The position numbers and the translations under genes are program-made. A stretch of 64,000 nt of DNA from Fusobacterium gastrosuis (GTDB lineage Bacteria > Fusobacteriota > Fusobacteriia > Fusobacteriales > Fusobacteriaceae). The notes beneath the pieces are model-generated. The model made no database searches. It was not told the DNA's origin and saw only the letters and a program-made list of their open reading frames with translations. The stretch spans positions 1,736,001-1,800,000 of the forward strand of contig NZ_LT607734.1 in NCBI RefSeq assembly GCF_900095285.1, given 5' to 3'. Below, piece after piece: positions 5,118 to 21,973 of this stretch (the first letter of the stretch is position 1; the number at the start of each line of letters is the position of its first letter).

Positions 5118-6449
5118 TCACACAAAACTCTTATTAACCCACTTTTTACTTTTCCATCTAAAATACATTGCAAAGCCTCTAATCCATTCATCAGCTGCAT
5201 TTGCTATCCAAATACCAATAAGTCCCCAACCTAAGCTTACTCCAAATAAATAAGAAAATGGTACTGCTACTATGTAAACAAATAATATTCCCATTATCAT
5301 AGGAAATTTTATATCCCCAGCTGCATGGAGAGAATTTATAATTACAATATTAAAAACTCTTCCTACCTCAAGTATTATCATCAGAGGAAAAACAACCATA
5401 GATGCTTTTAAAATATCCACATCTGTTGTAAATAAATGCATAATTTGCTTTCTAAATAAACATGCTCCTGAAGTTACAATAAAGGCAAGTATTAATGACA
5501 GTTTTAAACTTTTCAAACACTTTTCATAAACTTCATCTATTTCATTAGCTCCAACTAATTGTCCTACTTGAATTGCTGTTCCCTGCCCTAATGCTAATGA
5601 AAATATCATAACAAAATGTGAAATTAGCATCAAATAAGTCCTTGATGTTATCATTACTGTTCCCATAGAATTTATCATAGCCATAATAATTACCTGACCA
5701 ACATTCCATGCTAAATTTTCTCCTGCTGTTGGCAATCCAATCGAAAGAATATTTTTTATTATTCTAAATGGAAAAGGAGTTAGATATTTTATTTTAAATT
5801 TAAAATCGCAATACTTACACATAACTTTAAATGCTATGATACATCCCAATCCTCTTGAAATAACTGTCGATATTCCAACACCAGTTGCTCCTAAAATTGG
5901 CATTCCAAACCAACCATATATAAAAATTCCATTTCCTATTATATTTAATAAATTTACTCCAATATTTATAAATAAAATTTCCTTGGGATGACTATGGCTT
6001 TTCATAATAGCTCCACAACTTAACATAATTGCTTGAAAAATACATAACCCTCCAACCAATTGAAAATAAGTTTTTCCAACTTCTATTAATTCAACTGGAA
6101 GCTTAATTTTTATTAAAATGAACTCCCAAAAAAATAAATATGTAAATCCTAAAATTAACCCCAAAAATAAATTTAAAATTATTGATACAGAAATCACTTC
6201 TTTAATTCTTACTTTGTCTTTCGCACCTATATATTGAGCACATAAAATAGTTGTTGCCATATTTATAAAGCCAAAAATTACATTTTGTATATTTAAAATT
6301 TGGCTCATTCCACCAACTGCACCAACAGCCTCTCGACTATATTTCGCTAACATTATAGTATCGACATTTCCAACTATAGTTACTAATAGCAATTCCAAAA
6401 ATATTGGGACTGTCAAAGCCATCAAAGATTTTGTTTTAATTTTACCCAA
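5118..6449 (-). CDS. MATE family efflux transporter
   Basis: A 443-residue integral membrane protein with about 12 predicted hydrophobic segments and the MATE opening (LMALTVPIFLELLLVTIVGNVD). Members export cationic drugs or metabolites by Na+ or H+ antiport. I chose the TTG at 6449, ten bases after AAGGTGG. The open frame extends to 6512, but that part overlaps the nadD terminator and encodes a non-family stretch, and the GTG at 6458 is only one base from the RBS. The substrate is unknown. It is separated from guaA by a promoter. Confidence 0.9.
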   Translation of the reverse strand: MGKIKTKSLMALTVPIFLELLLVTIVGNVDTIMLAKYSREAVGAVGGMSQILNIQNVIFGFINMATTILCAQYIGAKDKVRIKEVISVSIILNLFLGLILGFTYLFFWEFILIKIKLPVELIEVGKTYFQLVGGLCIFQAIMLSCGAIMKSHSHPKEILFINIGVNLLNIIGNGIFIYGWFGMPILGATGVGISTVISRGLGCIIAFKVMCKYCDFKFKIKYLTPFPFRIIKNILSIGLPTAGENLAWNVGQVIIMAMINSMGTVMITSRTYLMLISHFVMIFSLALGQGTAIQVGQLVGANEIDEVYEKCLKSLKLSLILAFIVTSGACLFRKQIMHLFTTDVDILKASMVVFPLMIILEVGRVFNIVIINSLHAAGDIKFPMIMGILFVYIVAVPFSYLFGVSLGWGLIGIWIANAADEWIRGFAMYFRWKSKKWVNKSFV

Positions 6450-6479
6450 TCTTTTCACCCCACCTTTTTCTCTATAAAC

Positions 6480-6498
6480 AAAAAAGCCCTTACGGGCT
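6480..6498 (-). terminator. Terminator of the smc-lpxK-nadD cluster
   Basis: On the minus strand AGCCC-gtaa-GGGCT (6485-6498) is followed by a T tract (6480-6485). It lies 24 bases beyond the nadD stop and separates that cluster from the MATE gene. Confidence 0.78.
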
Positions 6499-6521
6499 CT
6501 TATATAAGCCATAAAATAGAA

Positions 6522-7085
6522 CTATCTATTTTTTAATAATTTAAGTATTTTAGGATTTACCATATGACTTATATCTTCTTTTAATTTTAATTTTTCTCTA
6601 ATTTCCGTAGAAGAAAAATCAAAATAAGAATTTTTTAAGAAAATTATATTCTTATGTTTGATTTCATTTTTTTTAGTATTACAATTTTTCCTTTTTAAAA
6701 CTACTAATTTACATAAATCTAATATTTTTTCATAGTTCTTCCAAGACCTAAAATTTTCTAAAGAATCTTCTCCTATAATTTCAAAATATTCATGTTCGGA
6801 ACCATAAATATCTATGATTTCCAATAAAGTATCATAAGTGTAAGATATTTTATTTTTTTTTATCTCTATATCTGATACTTCTATTTTATCTATATCTTCA
6901 AAAACTGTTTTACAAAGTTCATATCTAAAAAATGAGTCTTTTAGATTATTTTCTCTATGTGAAGGAATTCCAACAGGAATTACAAGTAATTTATCAAGAT
7001 TTAGCTCCTTTAAAACCAATTTTGCTATTTTCTCATGCCCAATATGAATAGGGTTAAAACTTCCACCATAAATTCCTATTTTCAT
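6522..7085 (-). CDS. nadD: Nicotinate-nucleotide adenylyltransferase
   Basis: Adenylates nicotinate mononucleotide to deamido-NAD in NAD synthesis. The nucleotidyltransferase signature GIYGGSFNPIHIGHEKIA is at residues 4-21, and the C-terminal SSTEIREKLK (about 158-167) is the second signature of this family. The 187-residue length is slightly short but within range. Its ATG directly follows the stop codon of the upstream gene, so the two are translated as a unit. Confidence 0.95.
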   Translation of the reverse strand: MKIGIYGGSFNPIHIGHEKIAKLVLKELNLDKLLVIPVGIPSHRENNLKDSFFRYELCKTVFEDIDKIEVSDIEIKKNKISYTYDTLLEIIDIYGSEHEYFEIIGEDSLENFRSWKNYEKILDLCKLVVLKRKNCNTKKNEIKHKNIIFLKNSYFDFSSTEIREKLKLKEDISHMVNPKILKLLKNR

Positions 7086-7853
7086 TTATTTCTCCATTAA
7101 AACTTTTTTAACTTCATCATTTAAAATAAAATCTTTTTCAAAATATTTAACTAAAGTATTTATAAATTTATTTTTATTTTTTAAGTCATATTTAGATAAT
7201 ACTTCATTAAAAATATTCTTGTATATTTCTTTATCTTCACTCATTTTTAACTTATTCAAATCTATTTCTTCATTGCTTGATTCTATATAATTTGATATAT
7301 CATCTCTATATTTTGTTAAATATGCAACAACAATAAATAAAATATTGTCGTCATATTTAGATTCTTTAAAAATTTTTTCAAGTGCATATACAAAAAATAA
7401 TTTCAGATTATTTGGATTCCCCATCATAGAAAAAGTATATAATACTTCAAAAAAATCTTTTGAACTTCTAAAAAATAATTCTTTTGCAAAAATTTTTGAA
7501 AAATTCAAATTTGATGATTGTAGTGTTTTTATGAGATTTATTCTTAACTCTGGAATTGTTAAATTTGAAGCTCTATCTATTTTTTTTAAATTTTGTTTTT
7601 CTTCTGGATAAGAATATTCAAAAACATAACTTGCTAACTTTTTTTTATTATTTGACAGAGCAAATAAAATTAATATAGGATTATAATTTTTTAATGAAAT
7701 ATTTCCCATATCATCCACTTTTAGATATGTTCTTTTATCAAAAAAAGGAGCAAAGTATGATAAAACTTCATATTTCCCTTTTTCTTCTATCATAGCTTCT
7801 AATTTTTCTAAATTTTTTTCTCTTAAAAATTCTACTTTTATATCTTTTTTCAT
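7086..7853 (-). CDS. Unrecognised protein, conserved position next to nadD
   Basis: This 255-residue, charged, probably cytoplasmic protein is not recognised. It is largely alpha-helical by composition, with no signal peptide or membrane segment; the middle part alternates short hydrophobic helices, suggesting a repeat-helix (HEAT/TPR-like) scaffold, but no motif is clear. It has an RBS (GAAGGGAATA), lies downstream of lpxK and abuts nadD with no gap, so it belongs to the smc-lpxK-nadD transcript. I cannot assign a function. Confidence 0.6.
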   Translation of the reverse strand: MKKDIKVEFLREKNLEKLEAMIEEKGKYEVLSYFAPFFDKRTYLKVDDMGNISLKNYNPILILFALSNNKKKLASYVFEYSYPEEKQNLKKIDRASNLTIPELRINLIKTLQSSNLNFSKIFAKELFFRSSKDFFEVLYTFSMMGNPNNLKLFFVYALEKIFKESKYDDNILFIVVAYLTKYRDDISNYIESSNEEIDLNKLKMSEDKEIYKNIFNEVLSKYDLKNKNKFINTLVKYFEKDFILNDEVKKVLMEK

Positions 7854-7928
7854 ATTATTCCCTTCATGAGAACAGGACTTTACCTGTGATCTGTCAAATA
7901 AAATTTTACATTAATTTTTTTATAAATA

Positions 7929-8921
7929 TTATTTTAAAGTATTATCTTCAAGCATGGTAAATTCAATTTTTAGTACAAATAAATTGCTTATATTTATGTT
8001 GGTTGGCAATTTTACCAAATCTTTTTCTGTTGTTACAATATATTCTGCTCCCATAATTTCAGACTTTTTCTTTATAAATGCAATGTCTTTCGGTTTAAAA
8101 TTATGATGGTCTTTAAAGTCTATTCTTTCTATATAGCTTGGTCCTAGGGAAGATATAGTTTTTTCAAAATTTATAGGATTTGCTAATCCTGAAAAAATCA
8201 ATATCCTTTTCCCTTTCAACCAAAATAATGGTTTCATATTTCCTTTCATATCACAAAGTTTACTAACCCCATGTTTAGCAACCGAAACATTCTTTTTAAA
8301 TTTTCTTTCCAAGTAATTTTTAATTCTTCTAAGCTCTCTTTCAGTTACTAAATCTGATTTGGTAATAATGAATTCACTTGCTCTTCTAGCTGCTTTTTTA
8401 AAATCTTCTCTAAGAAGTCCTGTAGGCAACAGATTCCCAAATCCGAAAGGATTAGTTGAATCAATTAAAACAATATCTCTATCTCGGTATAATTTCCTAT
8501 GTTGAAATCCATCATCTAAAACTATTGTATCAATATCATAATGTTTTTTGGCAAACATACATGCCTTATATCTATTAGCTCCAACTATGACTGGAACTTT
8601 TAAATTTATAGCATGAATATATGCTTCATCTCCACTTTCTTGTGGAGTTGCAAATATTACCATCCCATCACTCACTAAAAGTGGTTCTCTCTTTCTTTTT
8701 CCCTTATATCCTCTTGATATAACAGCTACTTTTCTTCCCTGTTCTGTCAATTTTTTCACAAAAAAATGTACAGCTGGTGTTTTCCCTGTTCCACCAACAG
8801 TTATATTTCCTATACAAAAAATTTCTACTCCCTCCACTTTTCTAATTAGGAGCATCTTTTTATTGTATAAAAAATTTCTAAAAGTTGTTATAAAAAGATA
8901 TATATAAGATAGTATCTTCAT
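7929..8921 (-). CDS. lpxK: Tetraacyldisaccharide 4'-kinase
   Basis: Phosphorylates the 4' position of the lipid A disaccharide at the inner membrane. The P-loop signature GNITVGGTGKTPAVHFF is at residues 39-55, preceded by a hydrophobic N-terminal helix that anchors the enzyme. The DDGFQHRKLYRD motif near 136 is typical of LpxK. Length (330) is normal. Its presence shows the organism makes lipid A. It starts 12 bases after the smc stop, in the same transcript. Confidence 0.96.
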   Translation of the reverse strand: MKILSYIYLFITTFRNFLYNKKMLLIRKVEGVEIFCIGNITVGGTGKTPAVHFFVKKLTEQGRKVAVISRGYKGKRKREPLLVSDGMVIFATPQESGDEAYIHAINLKVPVIVGANRYKACMFAKKHYDIDTIVLDDGFQHRKLYRDRDIVLIDSTNPFGFGNLLPTGLLREDFKKAARRASEFIITKSDLVTERELRRIKNYLERKFKKNVSVAKHGVSKLCDMKGNMKPLFWLKGKRILIFSGLANPINFEKTISSLGPSYIERIDFKDHHNFKPKDIAFIKKKSEIMGAEYIVTTEKDLVKLPTNINISNLFVLKIEFTMLEDNTLK

Positions 8922-8933
8922 ATATCCCCCTAA

Positions 8934-11900
8934 CTAGAATTTGACTGGTACTACCTTAGAAATTCCTATTTCTTTATTCATAGTAACTCCAAATATACTG
9001 TCAGATTCTTTCATGGTATCCTTATTATGTGTTATCAATATAAACTGCGATTGATCTGTAAACTCTCTTAATTTACTCAACAAATTTTTTGTATTTTTTT
9101 CATCAAGAGCAGCCTCAATTTCATCAAGAAAAGTGAAAGGACTAGGTTTATGCATGAATATTGCCATTATAAAAGCTATTGCAACCATCGACTTTTCTCC
9201 ACCTGATAATAGTGAAAGTGGCTGTTTTTTCTTGTTTTTAAATTTTACAAAAATCTCTATTCCACAGTTATCAAAATCTTCTTCGTTTATTAAATTTAAT
9301 TTCCCTTCTGTATTTCTTATAGTATCTTCACACATTTTATTAAAATTTTCATTTATTTTATTGTAAGTGTCATAAAAATTTTCATGAATTTTTTCATCAA
9401 TTTCTTGTATTAAATCAAGAAGTGATTTTTTTGCTTTTACAATATCATCTCTTTGTATACAGATAAAATCATATTTTGCCTTTAATTCTTTAAATTCTTC
9501 TATTGCTAATAGATTAACATCTCCAAAGTTATTGAGTTTAGCTTCCAAATTTCTCAAATTATCTTTAGCAGATTTAATTTTTTCTACACTGACCTCTTGT
9601 GCTACAATACTTTCTAAACTAATTAGACTTTCATTTATAGTTTCAATTTCTAAATTTATTTTTTCCAAACTATCACTTAATTTTTGTAATTTATCATTTG
9701 TGTGTAGACATTTAGATTCTAGTTCTGTTCTTTCTTTCATCAAAATCTTTTCTTCATCAGTTAAACTTATTTCTCTATTATTTAATCTTTCTATATCTTT
9801 ATTTTCTGTATGATATATTTTTTCAAGTTCTTCTATTTCAAGAACCAAGCTATTTTCTAAACTTACTAGTTCTTCTATTTTCTCATTTGTAGTTTTAATT
9901 TTTTCAATTAAGTTTTCTTTTTCTTCTGTTAATTCCTGTTCTTCTTTTTTTAGTCTTTTAGCATTATCAGCTATTTGTTCAAGCTTATCTTTATTGTTCA
10001 AATATAAAATTCTTATATCTGCAAATTTATTCTTTAACTCATTCATATCATATTTTGATTTTTCTAATTTTTTCTCTTCTAAATTTATCTCTTGCTTTAG
10101 TAGCTCAACTAAATTCTCTAACCTATCTTTTTCAGATAATGAAGAACCTATTTTACTTGAAAACTCTTTTGCGTATTTTTCTTCATCTTCTATATTAGTT
10201 TTAGCAATGATAATTTCTCTCTGAAGTTTTTCTATTCTATCATTTAAAACTATGAAATCTTCTTTGTATGTATTCAGTTGCTTACGACAGTTATCTTCTT
10301 GTGCATCAATCGTATCAATTTCATTTTCATAGTCTTCTAATTTTTTACTTAATTCTTCTCTTTCAGTATCTCCAATCTTAATTTTAGATCTTATTGCTAA
10401 AAGATTTTCTTCAAGCTCTTTTATTTCTTTTTTTCTTTCAAAAATTTGGCTAATCCCTGATTTTTGATTTTCTCCACCAGTGATTCTTCCTCTTGAACTC
10501 ATTAATTCCCCAGATAATGTTACTACATTTCCTGAAAATAAATTATTATTTATTATATTTATTGCGATGTCTATATGCTCAACCACCAATAAATTCCCAA
10601 AGACAAAATCTATAACCTTTTTATATTTCTCCTCAGCCCCAACCAAATCAGCAGCTACACCAAGTACGCCTGTAATTTTTTGCTTAAATTCTTTTTTATT
10701 AGGTTTTATTAAATCTAAAGCCAAAAATGATGCTCTACCTGCTTTTTTTTCAGTTAAATAATTTATTGCTCTTTTAGCAACTTCTTTATTTTCTACAATT
10801 ATATCCTGCAAATTTCCAGGTATTGCTGCCTCAATAGCTTTTTCTAATTTGGAATCAAAATTAATAAGTGAAATTAAAACTCCATTTATTCCAACAATTC
10901 CACTATTTAAAATTTCTTTTACACCCTTATTAAAACCTTCATTATTTTCTTCCATTCTAACAAGAGCTTCCAGCTTTCCTGAGTATCTTTTCTCATCATA
11001 TTCAAGATTTCTCATTTGTTCTGTAATTCTATTAATTTTTATACTGATTTCACTTAGTTGATTTTCTAAAAATTCATTTCTTTCTTCTATTTTTTCAAGC
11101 TCTTTTTCTTTTGTTTCTTTTAATTTTTGTATATCTTTTCTATTCTTATCATTTTCATCGTATTTTTGATTTAAAACTTCTAATTCTTTTTTATAGTTGT
11201 TAACTTCACTTTGACTGTTAGTTATTCTCCTATTAGTCATTTCAATTTCATTAATAACAGTTAGTTTTTCAAGTTCTAAATCTCTAATTTTTTTATCCTT
11301 AGCAGAAATTGATATCTCTATATTTTTCCCTTCATCTTCTAAGGTTTGAATATTTTTTTCAAATTCAATATTTTCTTCTTCCATTTCCAAAATATTTTTT
11401 TCAATACTTTTTTTCATTAGAATAAGTTCTTCTATTTCTTGTTTCTTTGAACTTATTTTAGAATCTATACTGTATTTTAATTCTTCTTTTGAAAATTTCT
11501 CTTTTTTGAAGCTCTCTGCTCTTTCCATAGCAACTGCTTTTTCTTTTGCTTTTTCTGAAAGTTTATCTCTTAATTCAGAATTTCTTGAACTTATAAGAGC
11601 TATCTCTTTCCTAACTTCCTCTTTTTCTAAACTTATAAAGTTTAATCTATCTTTTGTCTTTTCAAACTTTTCATTAGCTTCATTATATAAAACTATTGCT
11701 TCTTCTTTTGCTTTTTCATTTTCAATAAAAATCTTTTCTTTTATAGACAATTCAGTTAAACAAATTCCTTTAGTGAGAGAATTTTTCTCATCTCTTATAT
11801 TTATATACTTTTGAGCCAGCTCAGCTTGCTTTTCTATCTTATTTTTGTTTTCTCTTGTTTCATTAAGTATAATTTCTACTTTTTCCAATTCATTTTCTAT

Positions 11901-19590: not shown

Positions 19591-19623
19591 CAGAAAAAAC
19601 TTAAAAATAAAATGGAGGTATAT

Positions 19624-20361
19624 ATGAAATTTTTAGGAATTATTCCTGCCAGATATTCGTCTACAAGATTAGAAGCTAAGCCACTGAAAAAAATTCATGG
19701 ACATACTATGATTGAATGGGTATATAAAAGAGCTAAGAAATCAGAACTTCATGATTTAGTTGTGGCAACTGATGATAAAAGAATTTATGACGAGGTCATA
19801 TCTTTTGGTGGAAAAGCAATTATGACGAGTGAAACACATCCAAATGGAACCTCAAGAATAGCAGAAGTATGCGAAAAAATGAATGATTATGATGTGATAA
19901 TAAATATTCAAGGTGATGAACCTCTCATTGAAGCTGATATGATTAATTCATTAATTAATACCTTCAAAGAAAATAAAGATTTAGTAATGGCGACTTTAAA
20001 ACATAAATTAAATTCTAAAGAAGAAATTGAGAATCCAAATAGTGTAAAAGTTATCTGTGATAAAAATAACTATGCTATATATTTTTCAAGATCAGTAATA
20101 CCTTATCCAAGAAAAAATGAAAATATTTCATACTATAAACATATAGGAATTTATGCTTATAAAAGAGATTTTGTTATTGAGTATTCTAAAATGCCTTCGA
20201 GTCCTTTAGAAGAAGCTGAATCTTTAGAGCAATTAAGGGTTTTAGAAAATGGCTATAAGATAAAAGTTTTAGAAACATCTCATAGTCTAATAGGAGTTGA
20301 TACTGAACAAAATTTACAAGATGTTATCGCATATATTGAAAAAAATAAAATTACTTTATAA
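19624..20361 (+). CDS. kdsB: 3-deoxy-manno-octulosonate cytidylyltransferase
   Basis: Activates Kdo with CTP to CMP-Kdo for the lipopolysaccharide core. 245 residues, usual length. Seen: IIPARYSSTRLEAKPL at the N-terminus, VVATDDKRI near 49, INIQGDEPLIEADMI near 95 and the C-terminal HSLIGVDTEQNL. The ATG at 19624 follows ATGGAGGT; an ATG at 19612 overlaps that RBS. With lpxK it shows a Kdo-lipid A envelope. Confidence 0.96.
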   Translation: MKFLGIIPARYSSTRLEAKPLKKIHGHTMIEWVYKRAKKSELHDLVVATDDKRIYDEVISFGGKAIMTSETHPNGTSRIAEVCEKMNDYDVIINIQGDEPLIEADMINSLINTFKENKDLVMATLKHKLNSKEEIENPNSVKVICDKNNYAIYFSRSVIPYPRKNENISYYKHIGIYAYKRDFVIEYSKMPSSPLEEAESLEQLRVLENGYKIKVLETSHSLIGVDTEQNLQDVIAYIEKNKITL

Positions 20362-20434: not shown

Positions 20435-21973
20435 ATGAAAAAAAATGTTTTTATTGTCTTTCTTTGTTGCATATTCTTTATAGCTTGCTCCAAAACACCA
20501 AAAAAATCTGGTTCTAAAGGTGGATATATTCCAAAAGGTGGAAATGAAGTAGTTAGGGAAAAAGTTAATCTAGAGTATTCTGCTTTTAAAGAAAATGGTT
20601 TACCCATACCACATAATAATTATGGAAAAATGGTTGATTATCTTGTTCCAGTAAGTGAAAATGATAGTTCTAATGCTGGATTTTCCATATTTAAAAAGTA
20701 TAATGAAGAAAAAGTTCTAGATTATTATAAAGATTTAAAAATAAGAGGATTGGGAGATTCATCTTCATATTGGAGATGGAAAACGAGTATAAAAAAAGAT
20801 GAGCTTTATAATAAAATTGCTACAAGAATAGTTCAAATCTCAAAAGCAAATTATAAAAATGTCTTTACTTTAAATGATGATACTTGGATACAAAAACCTA
20901 TTTCTAATGCTGGTACTGTAAAAGATATAAAAGTTATGGCAAGGGGAGCTTCAGGAATAATAACTCACTTATTAGTTTCTACTTCTAAGGGTAAGTACTT
21001 AATTACTAAAGAATGGAATATAAGAAAAATTTTATCCACTAATAATCCTCTTTATGGTTCTAAAGGTGGAAATGATGGGTATTTATCAAAAGCTTTAATT
21101 CCATCTGTTACTTCACTGCCATCAGCCCATTTAGCATTTGAAGAAAAAAATGGCTATATCACGGTCTATGGGGCTGGCTTTGGTCATGGAGCAGGAATGC
21201 CACAGTATGCTGCTTATACCTTATCACAAAGAGGAAAAGACTATGAAGATATTTTAGAAAGATACTATAGAGGTGCAAAACTTGTAAATGTATCTAAAAT
21301 TTTGGGAAAAAATACAGAAATTAAAGTCGGAATCACTTCTTCTTCGAGTGGAAGACTAGAACATGGACCATTATCTATTGTAAGTTCTGGAAATTTAAGA
21401 GTTTATAATTCTGATTTAGACATTACTGTTGGAGATAATCATAAAGTAAAAATTGTAGGAAAAAATGGAAAAGTTCATATAACTTTGGATAATGAGAAAT
21501 CTTATTCTACTAAAGAGGCTCTTAATTTTTATGCAAAAGGATATTATTTAACTTTAAGTCCAGTTGTAAAAGGTCATACTTCATCTCCAAGATACCGTGG
21601 AATTTTAACACTATCCGCTTATGGAAATTCACTAAGAGTTATAAATACTCTTGATATAGAAAAATATTTACTGCAAGTTGTTCCAAGTGAAATGCCAAGA
21701 AGTTTTGGTTTGGAAGCATTAAAAGCTCAGGCTATTGCTGCTCGTACCTATGCAGTCAGTGATATTCAGAAACAAAAATATATTCAATATGGATTTCATA
21801 TCAAAGATACTGTTGAGAGTCAAGTCTATAATAATCAGGTTGAAAACGAAGATGCTACAAGAGCTATTGAGGAAACAGAACATAAAATTTTAATCCATGA
21901 TGATAAACCAATAGATGCAAAATACTTTTCTACTTCCGCTGGGTTCACAAGTTTCGCTAATGATATCTGGTAA
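20435..21973 (+). CDS. SpoIID/LytB-domain lipoprotein with permuted domain order
   Basis: 512 residues starting with a lipoprotein signal peptide (lipobox FFIAC, lipid Cys near 18). The SpoIID family cleaves glycan strands denuded of peptides or stimulates amidases. The usual N-terminal part, with the catalytic-Glu segment VVPSEMPRSFG and EALKAQAIAARTYA, here lies at about 415-440, and the protein ends just after STSAGFTSFANDIW. The usual C-terminal signature GAGFGHGAGMPQYA plus DILERYYRGA lies earlier, at about 244-280. So the halves are swapped relative to SpoIID/LytB. This makes the abrupt C-terminus a permutation boundary rather than a truncation. An RBS (AGGGGA) precedes the ATG. It follows kdsB and precedes the AlkD-like gene. 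Confidence 0.85.
   Translation: MKKNVFIVFLCCIFFIACSKTPKKSGSKGGYIPKGGNEVVREKVNLEYSAFKENGLPIPHNNYGKMVDYLVPVSENDSSNAGFSIFKKYNEEKVLDYYKDLKIRGLGDSSSYWRWKTSIKKDELYNKIATRIVQISKANYKNVFTLNDDTWIQKPISNAGTVKDIKVMARGASGIITHLLVSTSKGKYLITKEWNIRKILSTNNPLYGSKGGNDGYLSKALIPSVTSLPSAHLAFEEKNGYITVYGAGFGHGAGMPQYAAYTLSQRGKDYEDILERYYRGAKLVNVSKILGKNTEIKVGITSSSSGRLEHGPLSIVSSGNLRVYNSDLDITVGDNHKVKIVGKNGKVHITLDNEKSYSTKEALNFYAKGYYLTLSPVVKGHTSSPRYRGILTLSAYGNSLRVINTLDIEKYLLQVVPSEMPRSFGLEALKAQAIAARTYAVSDIQKQKYIQYGFHIKDTVESQVYNNQVENEDATRAIEETEHKILIHDDKPIDAKYFSTSAGFTSFANDIW

What the first reader, a model, noticed from the sequence alone, without database searches (positions are those of the whole stretch)
20435..21973. SpoIID/LytB lipoprotein with its two halves in swapped order (natural circular permutation)
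Seen: the signature that normally ends SpoIID/LytB (GAGFGHGAGMPQYA then DILERYYRGA) lies at about residues 244-280, while the part that normally begins it (VVPSEMP with the catalytic Glu, EALKAQAIAARTYA, STSAGFTSFANDIW) lies at about 415-512 and ends the protein. The WRW segment near residue 110 corresponds to what normally follows STSGG..W. So the chain begins and ends inside the loop after the STSGG motif. Known: SpoIID is a glycan-cleaving enzyme. Inference: the fold is kept but the chain termini moved, and a lipid anchor now tethers a different face to the membrane.
Basis: partly seen in the sequence, partly recalled or inferred. Interest (0 to 1): 0.75.

Follow-up and report, generated by a model that had tools for sequence, protein, structure and literature searches.

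The report
Circularly permuted cell-wall enzyme in fusobacteria
One branch of fusobacteria appears to have replaced its usual SpoIID-type wall-cutting enzyme with a version whose two halves come in swapped order and which carries a predicted fatty anchor at the new start, a natural experiment in moving the ends of a protein.

Summary
Confirmed and extended. The 512-aa predicted lipoprotein holds the second half of a SpoIID/LytB domain (residues ~69-290) before the first half (~295-512). The new ends lie in one short loop, between the Trp after STSxG and the PYL motif. It is no assembly oddity: 46 open copies in 44 Fusobacteriota genomes share the order, and 44 of 46 end in that Trp. Another 33 Fusobacteriota genomes have the normal order; none of the 77 has both. 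The permuted genomes form one clade. Their enzyme is not the resident one rearranged: it groups with a longer Bacillota SpoIID/LytB type, in normal order wherever I saw it, and grouping with the resident type is rejected (AU p 0.0002). In 13 of 13 permuted genomes with the old site in hand the resident gene is gone; the permuted gene usually follows kdsB. AlphaFold gives one coherent chain (pTM 0.79); one half superposes on SpoIID, the other on SleC, at modest scores. The Glu aligned with SpoIID's catalytic Glu is present in 46 of 46. Most likely it is a lipid-anchored lytic transglycosylase for amidase-denuded glycan. Activity, anchoring, packing of the halves and any benefit of permutation are untested. 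The searches of open papers found no permuted SpoIID.

The parts
20435..20485 (+). predicted lipoprotein signal peptide, residues 1-17
   Evidence: sequence; Cys18 invariant in the 26-row alignment A1
20486..20488 (+). lipobox Cys18, predicted lipid anchor
   Evidence: invariant in A1; my lipobox rule met by 41 of 46 permuted proteins
20489..20638 (+). new N-terminal linker, residues 19-68, mostly low or middling confidence in the model
   Evidence: block pLDDT 31-84 for residues 21-70
20639..21304 (+). former second half of the SpoIID/LytB domain, residues 69-290 (PYL-like YLVP, YWRW, GHG and ERYY motifs)
   Evidence: residues 63-287 superpose on SpoIID 5i1t 209-354
21170..21211 (+). GAGFGHGAGMPQYA motif, residues 246-259, normally near the C-terminus
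   Evidence: G246, G248, G250, H251, G252, G254, Q257 invariant in A1
21287..21328 (+). junction of the former C-terminal and former N-terminal parts, around residues 285-298
   Evidence: Bacillota matches end near position 229 of the roughly 237-position C profile and begin at position 1 of the N profile in many rows; block pLDDT 82-96 for residues 291-360
21317..21970 (+). former first half of the SpoIID/LytB domain, residues 295-512, including PF08486 (397-487)
   Evidence: residues 288-504 superpose on SleC 159-290
21689..21691 (+). Glu419, aligned with catalytic Glu101 of C. difficile SpoIID
   Evidence: phmmer alignment with 5txu; E101 as catalytic in PMC6221140 (passages); present in 46 of 46
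21929..21973 (+). STSAGFTSFANDIW and stop codon: new C-terminus, residues 499-512
   Evidence: 44 of 46 permuted proteins end in Trp
19612..20361 (+). kdsB (CMP-KDO synthetase), conserved upstream neighbour, possibly co-transcribed (73-base gap)
   Evidence: TIGR00466 E 3.2e-69; next ORF of 150 or more residues upstream in 40 of 46 permuted loci

Best explanation
A natural circular permutant of a long SpoIID/LytB enzyme, present since the ancestor of one fusobacterial branch (Fusobacterium, Cetobacterium and relatives), related to a Bacillota-type gene and standing in for the resident SpoIID. Shown: swapped order, single clade, relationship to the long Bacillota type, absence of the resident gene from its usual site, conservation of the motifs of both halves. 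Predicted from sequence: lipid anchor. Inferred: lateral acquisition; that the chain folds back into the SpoIID fold with its catalytic cleft intact, is exported, lipidated at Cys18, and cuts the glycan backbone of peptidoglycan strands whose peptides an Amidase_3 enzyme has removed, as SpoIID does, with the tether now leaving from the loop after STSxG instead of the old N-terminus. Inferred origin: tandem duplication (N-C-N-C), then a new start before the first C half and a new stop after the second N half.
For: Two reversed significant matches. 46 of 46 two-piece fusobacterial proteins in 44 genomes keep the order; 33 of 33 others are normal; 0 of 77 genomes have both. 44 of 46 end in the same Trp. 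Permuted proteins are one clade (100/98) within a permuted + long-Bacillota group (100/99) (one search agrees); permuted + resident held together is rejected, AU p 0.000171. Permuted genomes are one clade (100/99) on MltG+TilS+FtsH. Resident site empty in 13 of 13, with at most 227 bases between the flanking matches. Of 51 columns nearly fixed in 65 Bacillota-type proteins, 42 are nearly fixed to the same residue in the permuted set, 21 in the resident set. Model pLDDT 82.3, pTM 0.79; half-by-half matches to SpoIID and SleC. Own genome has 2 Amidase_3 matches and a single PF08486 match. A natural N-C-N-C tandem exists in L126.
Against: No activity data. Residues 499-512, which hold STSxG, have pLDDT under 50. 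Foldseek gave no PDB match at E 0.001 or better (best SpoIID, E 0.0088), and each half reaches Z of only about 8, a level the tool warns can be chance. The resident set was aligned only over its local matches, which lowers its count of 21. No donor with the permuted order and no normal-order long form in a fusobacterium was found, so the order of transfer and permutation is unknown. Whether the permuted clade is inside or beside the long type is unsettled (79/98). No SpoIIP and no Pfam SPOR match in this genome, so the partners known from elsewhere are absent.
Confidence: 0.8

Rival explanations
1. The halves do not close within one chain: the protein works as a domain-swapped dimer, each active site built from the second half of one chain and the first half of another.
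For: Only about ten residues at the junction lack a counterpart in the Bacillota profile matches, so strain is conceivable; closure within a monomer was only modelled.
Against: A single-chain model folds with pTM 0.79 and block pLDDT 82-96 for residues 291-360, just past the junction. Oligomeric state was not examined.
Confidence: 0.1
2. It is a scaffold or glycan-binding relic without lytic activity, kept for envelope binding.
For: No activity data; SpoIIP and SPOR not found in this genome.
Against: Glu419 and the key motif residues of both halves are invariant or nearly so; it is the only PF08486 protein in the genome and the resident enzyme's site is empty.
Confidence: 0.12
3. The permuted gene arose from the resident fusobacterial SpoIID by rearrangement, without transfer.
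For: Both occur in the same bacterial family and exclude each other across 77 genomes.
Against: AU test rejects grouping them, p 0.000171 (run after the first tree had been seen); the resident type scores 114/54 bits on average against 208/161 for the Bacillota type; different locus.
Confidence: 0.04
4. Two tandem partial domains or an assembly artefact rather than one permuted domain.
For: Only part of the model is matched in each stretch.
Against: The two stretches are complementary (model 2-111 and 143-269 in the window), each present once, and the order is intact in 46 open frames of 44 genomes, some of them single-contig.
Confidence: 0.02

Closest known systems
SpoIID/LytB domain proteins (TIGR02669; Pfam PF08486), long Bacillota type such as L125 Bacillus litorisediminis, 590 aa
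   Same: Same two halves, most of the same near-fixed residues (42 of 51 columns), profile matches along both halves
   Different: Normal order in all 65 sampled loci; L125 has a folded stretch of about 75 residues ahead of the first half for which I saw no counterpart in the permutant (the linker was not tested against it); my lipobox rule met by 16 of 65
SpoIID of Clostridioides difficile and Bacillus anthracis (PDB 5i1t, 5txu, 4rwr), lytic transglycosylase of spore engulfment
   Same: Both halves by sequence, second half by fold, catalytic Glu aligned
   Different: Order; no SpoIIP partner in this genome; below the TIGR02870 cut-off, 137.7 against 234.75 bits
Resident SpoIID/LytB of other Fusobacteriota (MltG-radical SAM-SpoIID-TilS-FtsH locus)
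   Same: SpoIID/LytB family, probably the same job (inference)
   Different: Normal order, mostly shorter, other locus, different lineage
Waddlia SpoIID, septal glycan-cutter of a non-sporulating bacterium (PMC6635528, passages read)
   Same: SpoIID domain in a non-sporulating bacterium
   Different: No permutation is mentioned in the passages read; its order was not tested here

Membership tests
SpoIID/LytB domain family (TIGR02669) | score above the curated cut-off of 83.3 bits | tested here: met
   170.5 bits, two stretches
SpoIID/LytB domain family (TIGR02669) | N-to-C order of the model | tested here: not met
   model 2-111 lies after model 143-269; NCBI's cut-off is on score alone, so I file it as a permuted relative of the family, not as an ordinary member
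SpoIID/LytB domain family (TIGR02669) | catalytic Glu of the SEM motif | tested here: met
   Glu419 aligned with E101, in 46 of 46 permuted
SpoIID/LytB domain family (TIGR02669) | glycan-cleaving activity | not testable with these tools
   needs an assay
Stage II sporulation protein D equivalog (TIGR02870) | score above 234.75 bits | tested here: not met
   137.7 bits
Stage II sporulation protein D equivalog (TIGR02870) | SpoIIP partner in the genome | tested here: not met
   PF07454: 0 matches in the own genome
Natural circular permutant | complementary halves in reversed order, each once | tested here: met
Natural circular permutant | relatives with the unpermuted order | tested here: met
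   65 of 65 Bacillota-type loci and 33 of 33 resident proteins
Natural circular permutant | same three-dimensional arrangement of the two halves | tested here: inconclusive
   coherent model and half-by-half superposition at Z about 8; no non-sequential superposition available
Bacterial lipoprotein | signal peptide with lipobox Cys | tested here: met
   Cys18; processing itself not tested

The most novel reading that the evidence does not exclude
The permutation was selected because it moved the membrane tether: it put a lipid anchor on the loop after STSxG, so that a secreted glycan-cutter became an envelope-anchored one held with its cleft in a new orientation, and this let a Bacillota xenologue displace the resident enzyme in a diderm lineage. 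A clade-wide, ancient enzyme replacement by a circular permutant would then be an adaptation of topology, not a neutral accident.
Probability: 0.3. Interest if true: 0.75.

Novelty: new variant of a known kind. Interest (0 to 1): 0.62.

Why it matters
Natural circular permutations of enzymes are uncommon (recalled). Here permuted and unpermuted forms both survive in related bacteria, the event is placed on one branch, the old locus is visibly emptied, and the cut site is defined to a few residues. That makes it testable whether moving the ends (and the membrane tether) changes where a cell-wall enzyme works. It also matters for annotation: linear profiles such as TIGR02669 see two fragments, and homology models or alignments that assume the normal order will be wrong for these fusobacterial proteins.

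Tried and rejected
Assembly or frameshift artefact: rejected, 46 open frames in 44 genomes. Origin from the resident SpoIID: rejected by AU test and by locus. A permuted donor in Bacillota: not found. Named loci 0 of 65 (64 Bacillota and one Acholeplasmataceae MAG by the labels); of genomes with both halves above threshold, 0 of 8 at E 1e-10 in genomes holding eight of those loci, 0 of 9 in a draw of 149 at 1e-30, 0 of 10 in 198 at 1e-40, 0 of 12 in 245 at 1e-40; 20 of 20 further Bacillota proteins are normal too. These sets overlap in a few genomes; order was read from coordinates by eye.

Choices that shape the counts. The tree used 15 of 46 permuted, 12 of 33 resident, 25 of 65 named Bacillota-type rows and 19 of 20 (L195, odd C half, dropped). 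The permuted group is beside or inside the long type; which is not settled (79/98). The 0-3 residue gap between C and N profile matches follows from how I cut the profiles and is not used as evidence. The resident set entered only over its local profile matches, so its 21 of 51 is a low estimate. Lipobox counts rest on a regular expression of mine; 5 of 46 permuted proteins fail it (L035, L049, L069, L070, L072) though each shows a Cys after a hydrophobic stretch by eye. Neighbours are ORFs of 150 or more residues, so smaller genes are unseen. The midpoint root is for drawing. Foldseek had no PDB hit at E 0.001 or better; below rank 3 the VIA-align list is filled by NAD kinases, lipid kinases and the like at Z about 5 for residues 294-398, which I take as a common arrangement.

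Papers: SpoIID with circular permutation 0, SpoIID with Fusobacterium 0, SpoIID with permut- 4 (titles and abstract starts seen, none on this), SpoIID with Fusobacteri- 2 (listing only), circular permutation with lytic transglycosylase 6 (listing only), circularly permuted with peptidoglycan hydrolase 25, of which 10 listed (listing only), SpoIID with lytic transglycosylase and crystal structure 13, of which passages of two were read. The library holds open-licence papers only.

Full report
What is there. The ORF at 20435-21973 (+) encodes 512 residues with a predicted lipoprotein signal (Cys18), a poorly conserved linker to about residue 68, then the second half of a SpoIID/LytB domain (69-290), then its first half (295-512), ending at Trp512. 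TIGR02669 scores 170.5 bits in two stretches (cut-off 83.3) and PF08486 lies at 397-487. Against solved SpoIID 4rwr the two halves align separately and in reverse order, i-Evalues 1.8e-13 and 2.8e-7.

How general it is. Of 98 Fusobacteriota genomes, 77 have a TIGR02669 match. The DNA of all of them came in through. Read with the two halves of the window protein as queries, 46 proteins in 44 genomes are permuted and 33 proteins in 33 genomes are normal; no genome is in both sets. The permuted set fills genera g1-g6, g11 and g12, all in the window's own family f1; the other f1 genera with a match are normal. Named loci from a separate scan place the permuted form in Fusobacterium, Cetobacterium and unclassified Fusobacteriaceae (15 of 80 loci). 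44 of 46 permuted proteins end in the Trp that follows STSxG; the exceptions are L070 and L075.

Where the chain was cut. In normal-order relatives the Trp is followed by a loop (median 11 residues in the Bacillota type, 52 of 65 measurable; median 4 in the resident type, 28 of 33) and then the PYL motif. Permuted proteins stop at the Trp and carry the PYL motif (YLVP here) after the linker. Bacillota proteins match the first-half profile from position 1 to 220 in many rows and the second-half profile from about 2 to about 230, so both halves are covered nearly end to end and only about ten residues at the new junction lack a counterpart. L125 has a folded stretch of about 75 residues ahead of the first half (strands from 39 to 119 in its model) for which I saw no counterpart; I did not test the new linker against it.

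Whose enzyme it is. Profiles built from the two halves of the permuted set score 208 and 161 bits on average on 65 Bacillota-type loci, but only 114 and 54 on the 33 resident fusobacterial proteins. All 65 have normal order. In a tree of 71 proteins with the halves put in common order, the permuted set is one clade (100/98) within a permuted + long-Bacillota group (100/99); the resident set lies elsewhere, beside short Bacillota SpoIIDs (95/88). Holding permuted and resident together costs 70 log units, AU p 0.000171. A quick tree of 144 rows agrees. A tree of MltG, TilS and FtsH from 28 of these genomes puts the 14 permuted genomes in one clade, 100/99, next to normal-order members of the same family. 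One acquisition and one permutation suffice; their order in time is open, and so is the donor.

Replacement. In the 12 resident loci drawn, the gene is followed by TilS and FtsH (in one, with a gene between) and, where the contig reaches that far, preceded by MltG, often with a radical-SAM gene between. I fetched that site from 14 permuted genomes: 13 contain MltG, TilS and FtsH in order, with at most 227 bases between the match before TilS and TilS itself, and no resident SpoIID hit at E under 1e-5; the fourteenth (L185) is cut by a contig end. The permuted gene instead follows kdsB in 40 of 46 loci. Of the other six, two are second paralogues (L070, L072), one begins its contig (L054), one was not drawn by the script (L064), and two show no kdsB ORF there (L036, L074). 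In five normal-order genomes examined, the gene after kdsB has no match to the permuted proteins; in four it faces the other way.

Structure. AlphaFold2 on 16 permuted sequences gives pLDDT 82.3 and pTM 0.79. VIA-align matches residues 63-287 to SpoIID 5i1t 209-354 (Z 8.6, 1.9 A, 140 residues), 39-289 to 4rwr 188-331 (Z 8.0, 3.2 A, 139), and 288-504 to SleC 159-290 (Z 7.8, 2.4 A, 120). Foldseek's best match is 5i1t with E 0.0088 and probability 1.00; nothing reaches E 0.001. The normal-order relative L125 covers 5i1t 70-354 in one piece (Z 25.1, 2.9 A, 266 residues) and also SleC 147-328 (Z 12.2). A sequential aligner can only match one half of a permutant at a time, so the low scores are expected but are not proof. 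The packing of the halves on each other rests on the model, and residues 499-512 are modelled with low confidence.

Mechanism. Glu419 aligns with E101 of C. difficile SpoIID, whose mutation abolishes activity (PMC6221140, passages). It is present in all 46 permuted proteins, as are His251 and Gln257. SpoIID acts on glycan strands stripped of peptides; a homologue in the non-sporulating Waddlia localises to the division septum (PMC6635528, passages). The window's genome has two Amidase_3 matches, no SpoIIP, no Pfam SPOR match, and one PF08486 protein. I infer a lipid-anchored lytic transglycosylase that clears denuded strands behind an Amidase_3 enzyme. The anchor would leave from the loop after STSxG: 41 of 46 permuted proteins meet my lipobox rule, against 8 of 33 resident ones and 0 of the 16 resident ones in family f1 (one of which lacks its start).

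Origin. Permutation by duplication predicts N-C-N-C intermediates. One of the 65 Bacillota-type loci, L126 (Alkalihalobacillus pseudalcaliphilus, 1290 aa), is such a tandem. It is not shown to be ancestral, but it shows that such a tandem exists in nature.

Novelty. The family is known; the permuted order, its clade-wide spread and the replacement were not described in any paper that the searches brought up in the open library. Hence 'new variant of a known kind'.

Noticed in passing
L126 (Alkalihalobacillus pseudalcaliphilus), protein at 5779-9648: 1290-aa protein with two full SpoIID/LytB domains in tandem and an LPxTATN sorting signal.
   Followed up: partly
L070 and L072 (genomes G047, G049, genus g11): A second, divergent permuted paralogue that is not next to kdsB but next to another shared gene (cluster c106).
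   Followed up: no
98 Fusobacteriota genomes: 21 of 98 genomes, 19 of them in family f4, have no SpoIID/LytB match at E 0.001, so the enzyme seems dispensable in parts of this phylum.
   Followed up: no
L172, L176, L180, L181, L182 (genera g1, g6, g12): The radical-SAM gene seen between MltG and TilS in 8 of 13 permuted genomes is missing in these five.
   Followed up: no
L075 (genome G051): The permuted protein stops before the STSxG motif (ends YQDKPADA), perhaps a decaying copy or a sequencing error.
   Followed up: no
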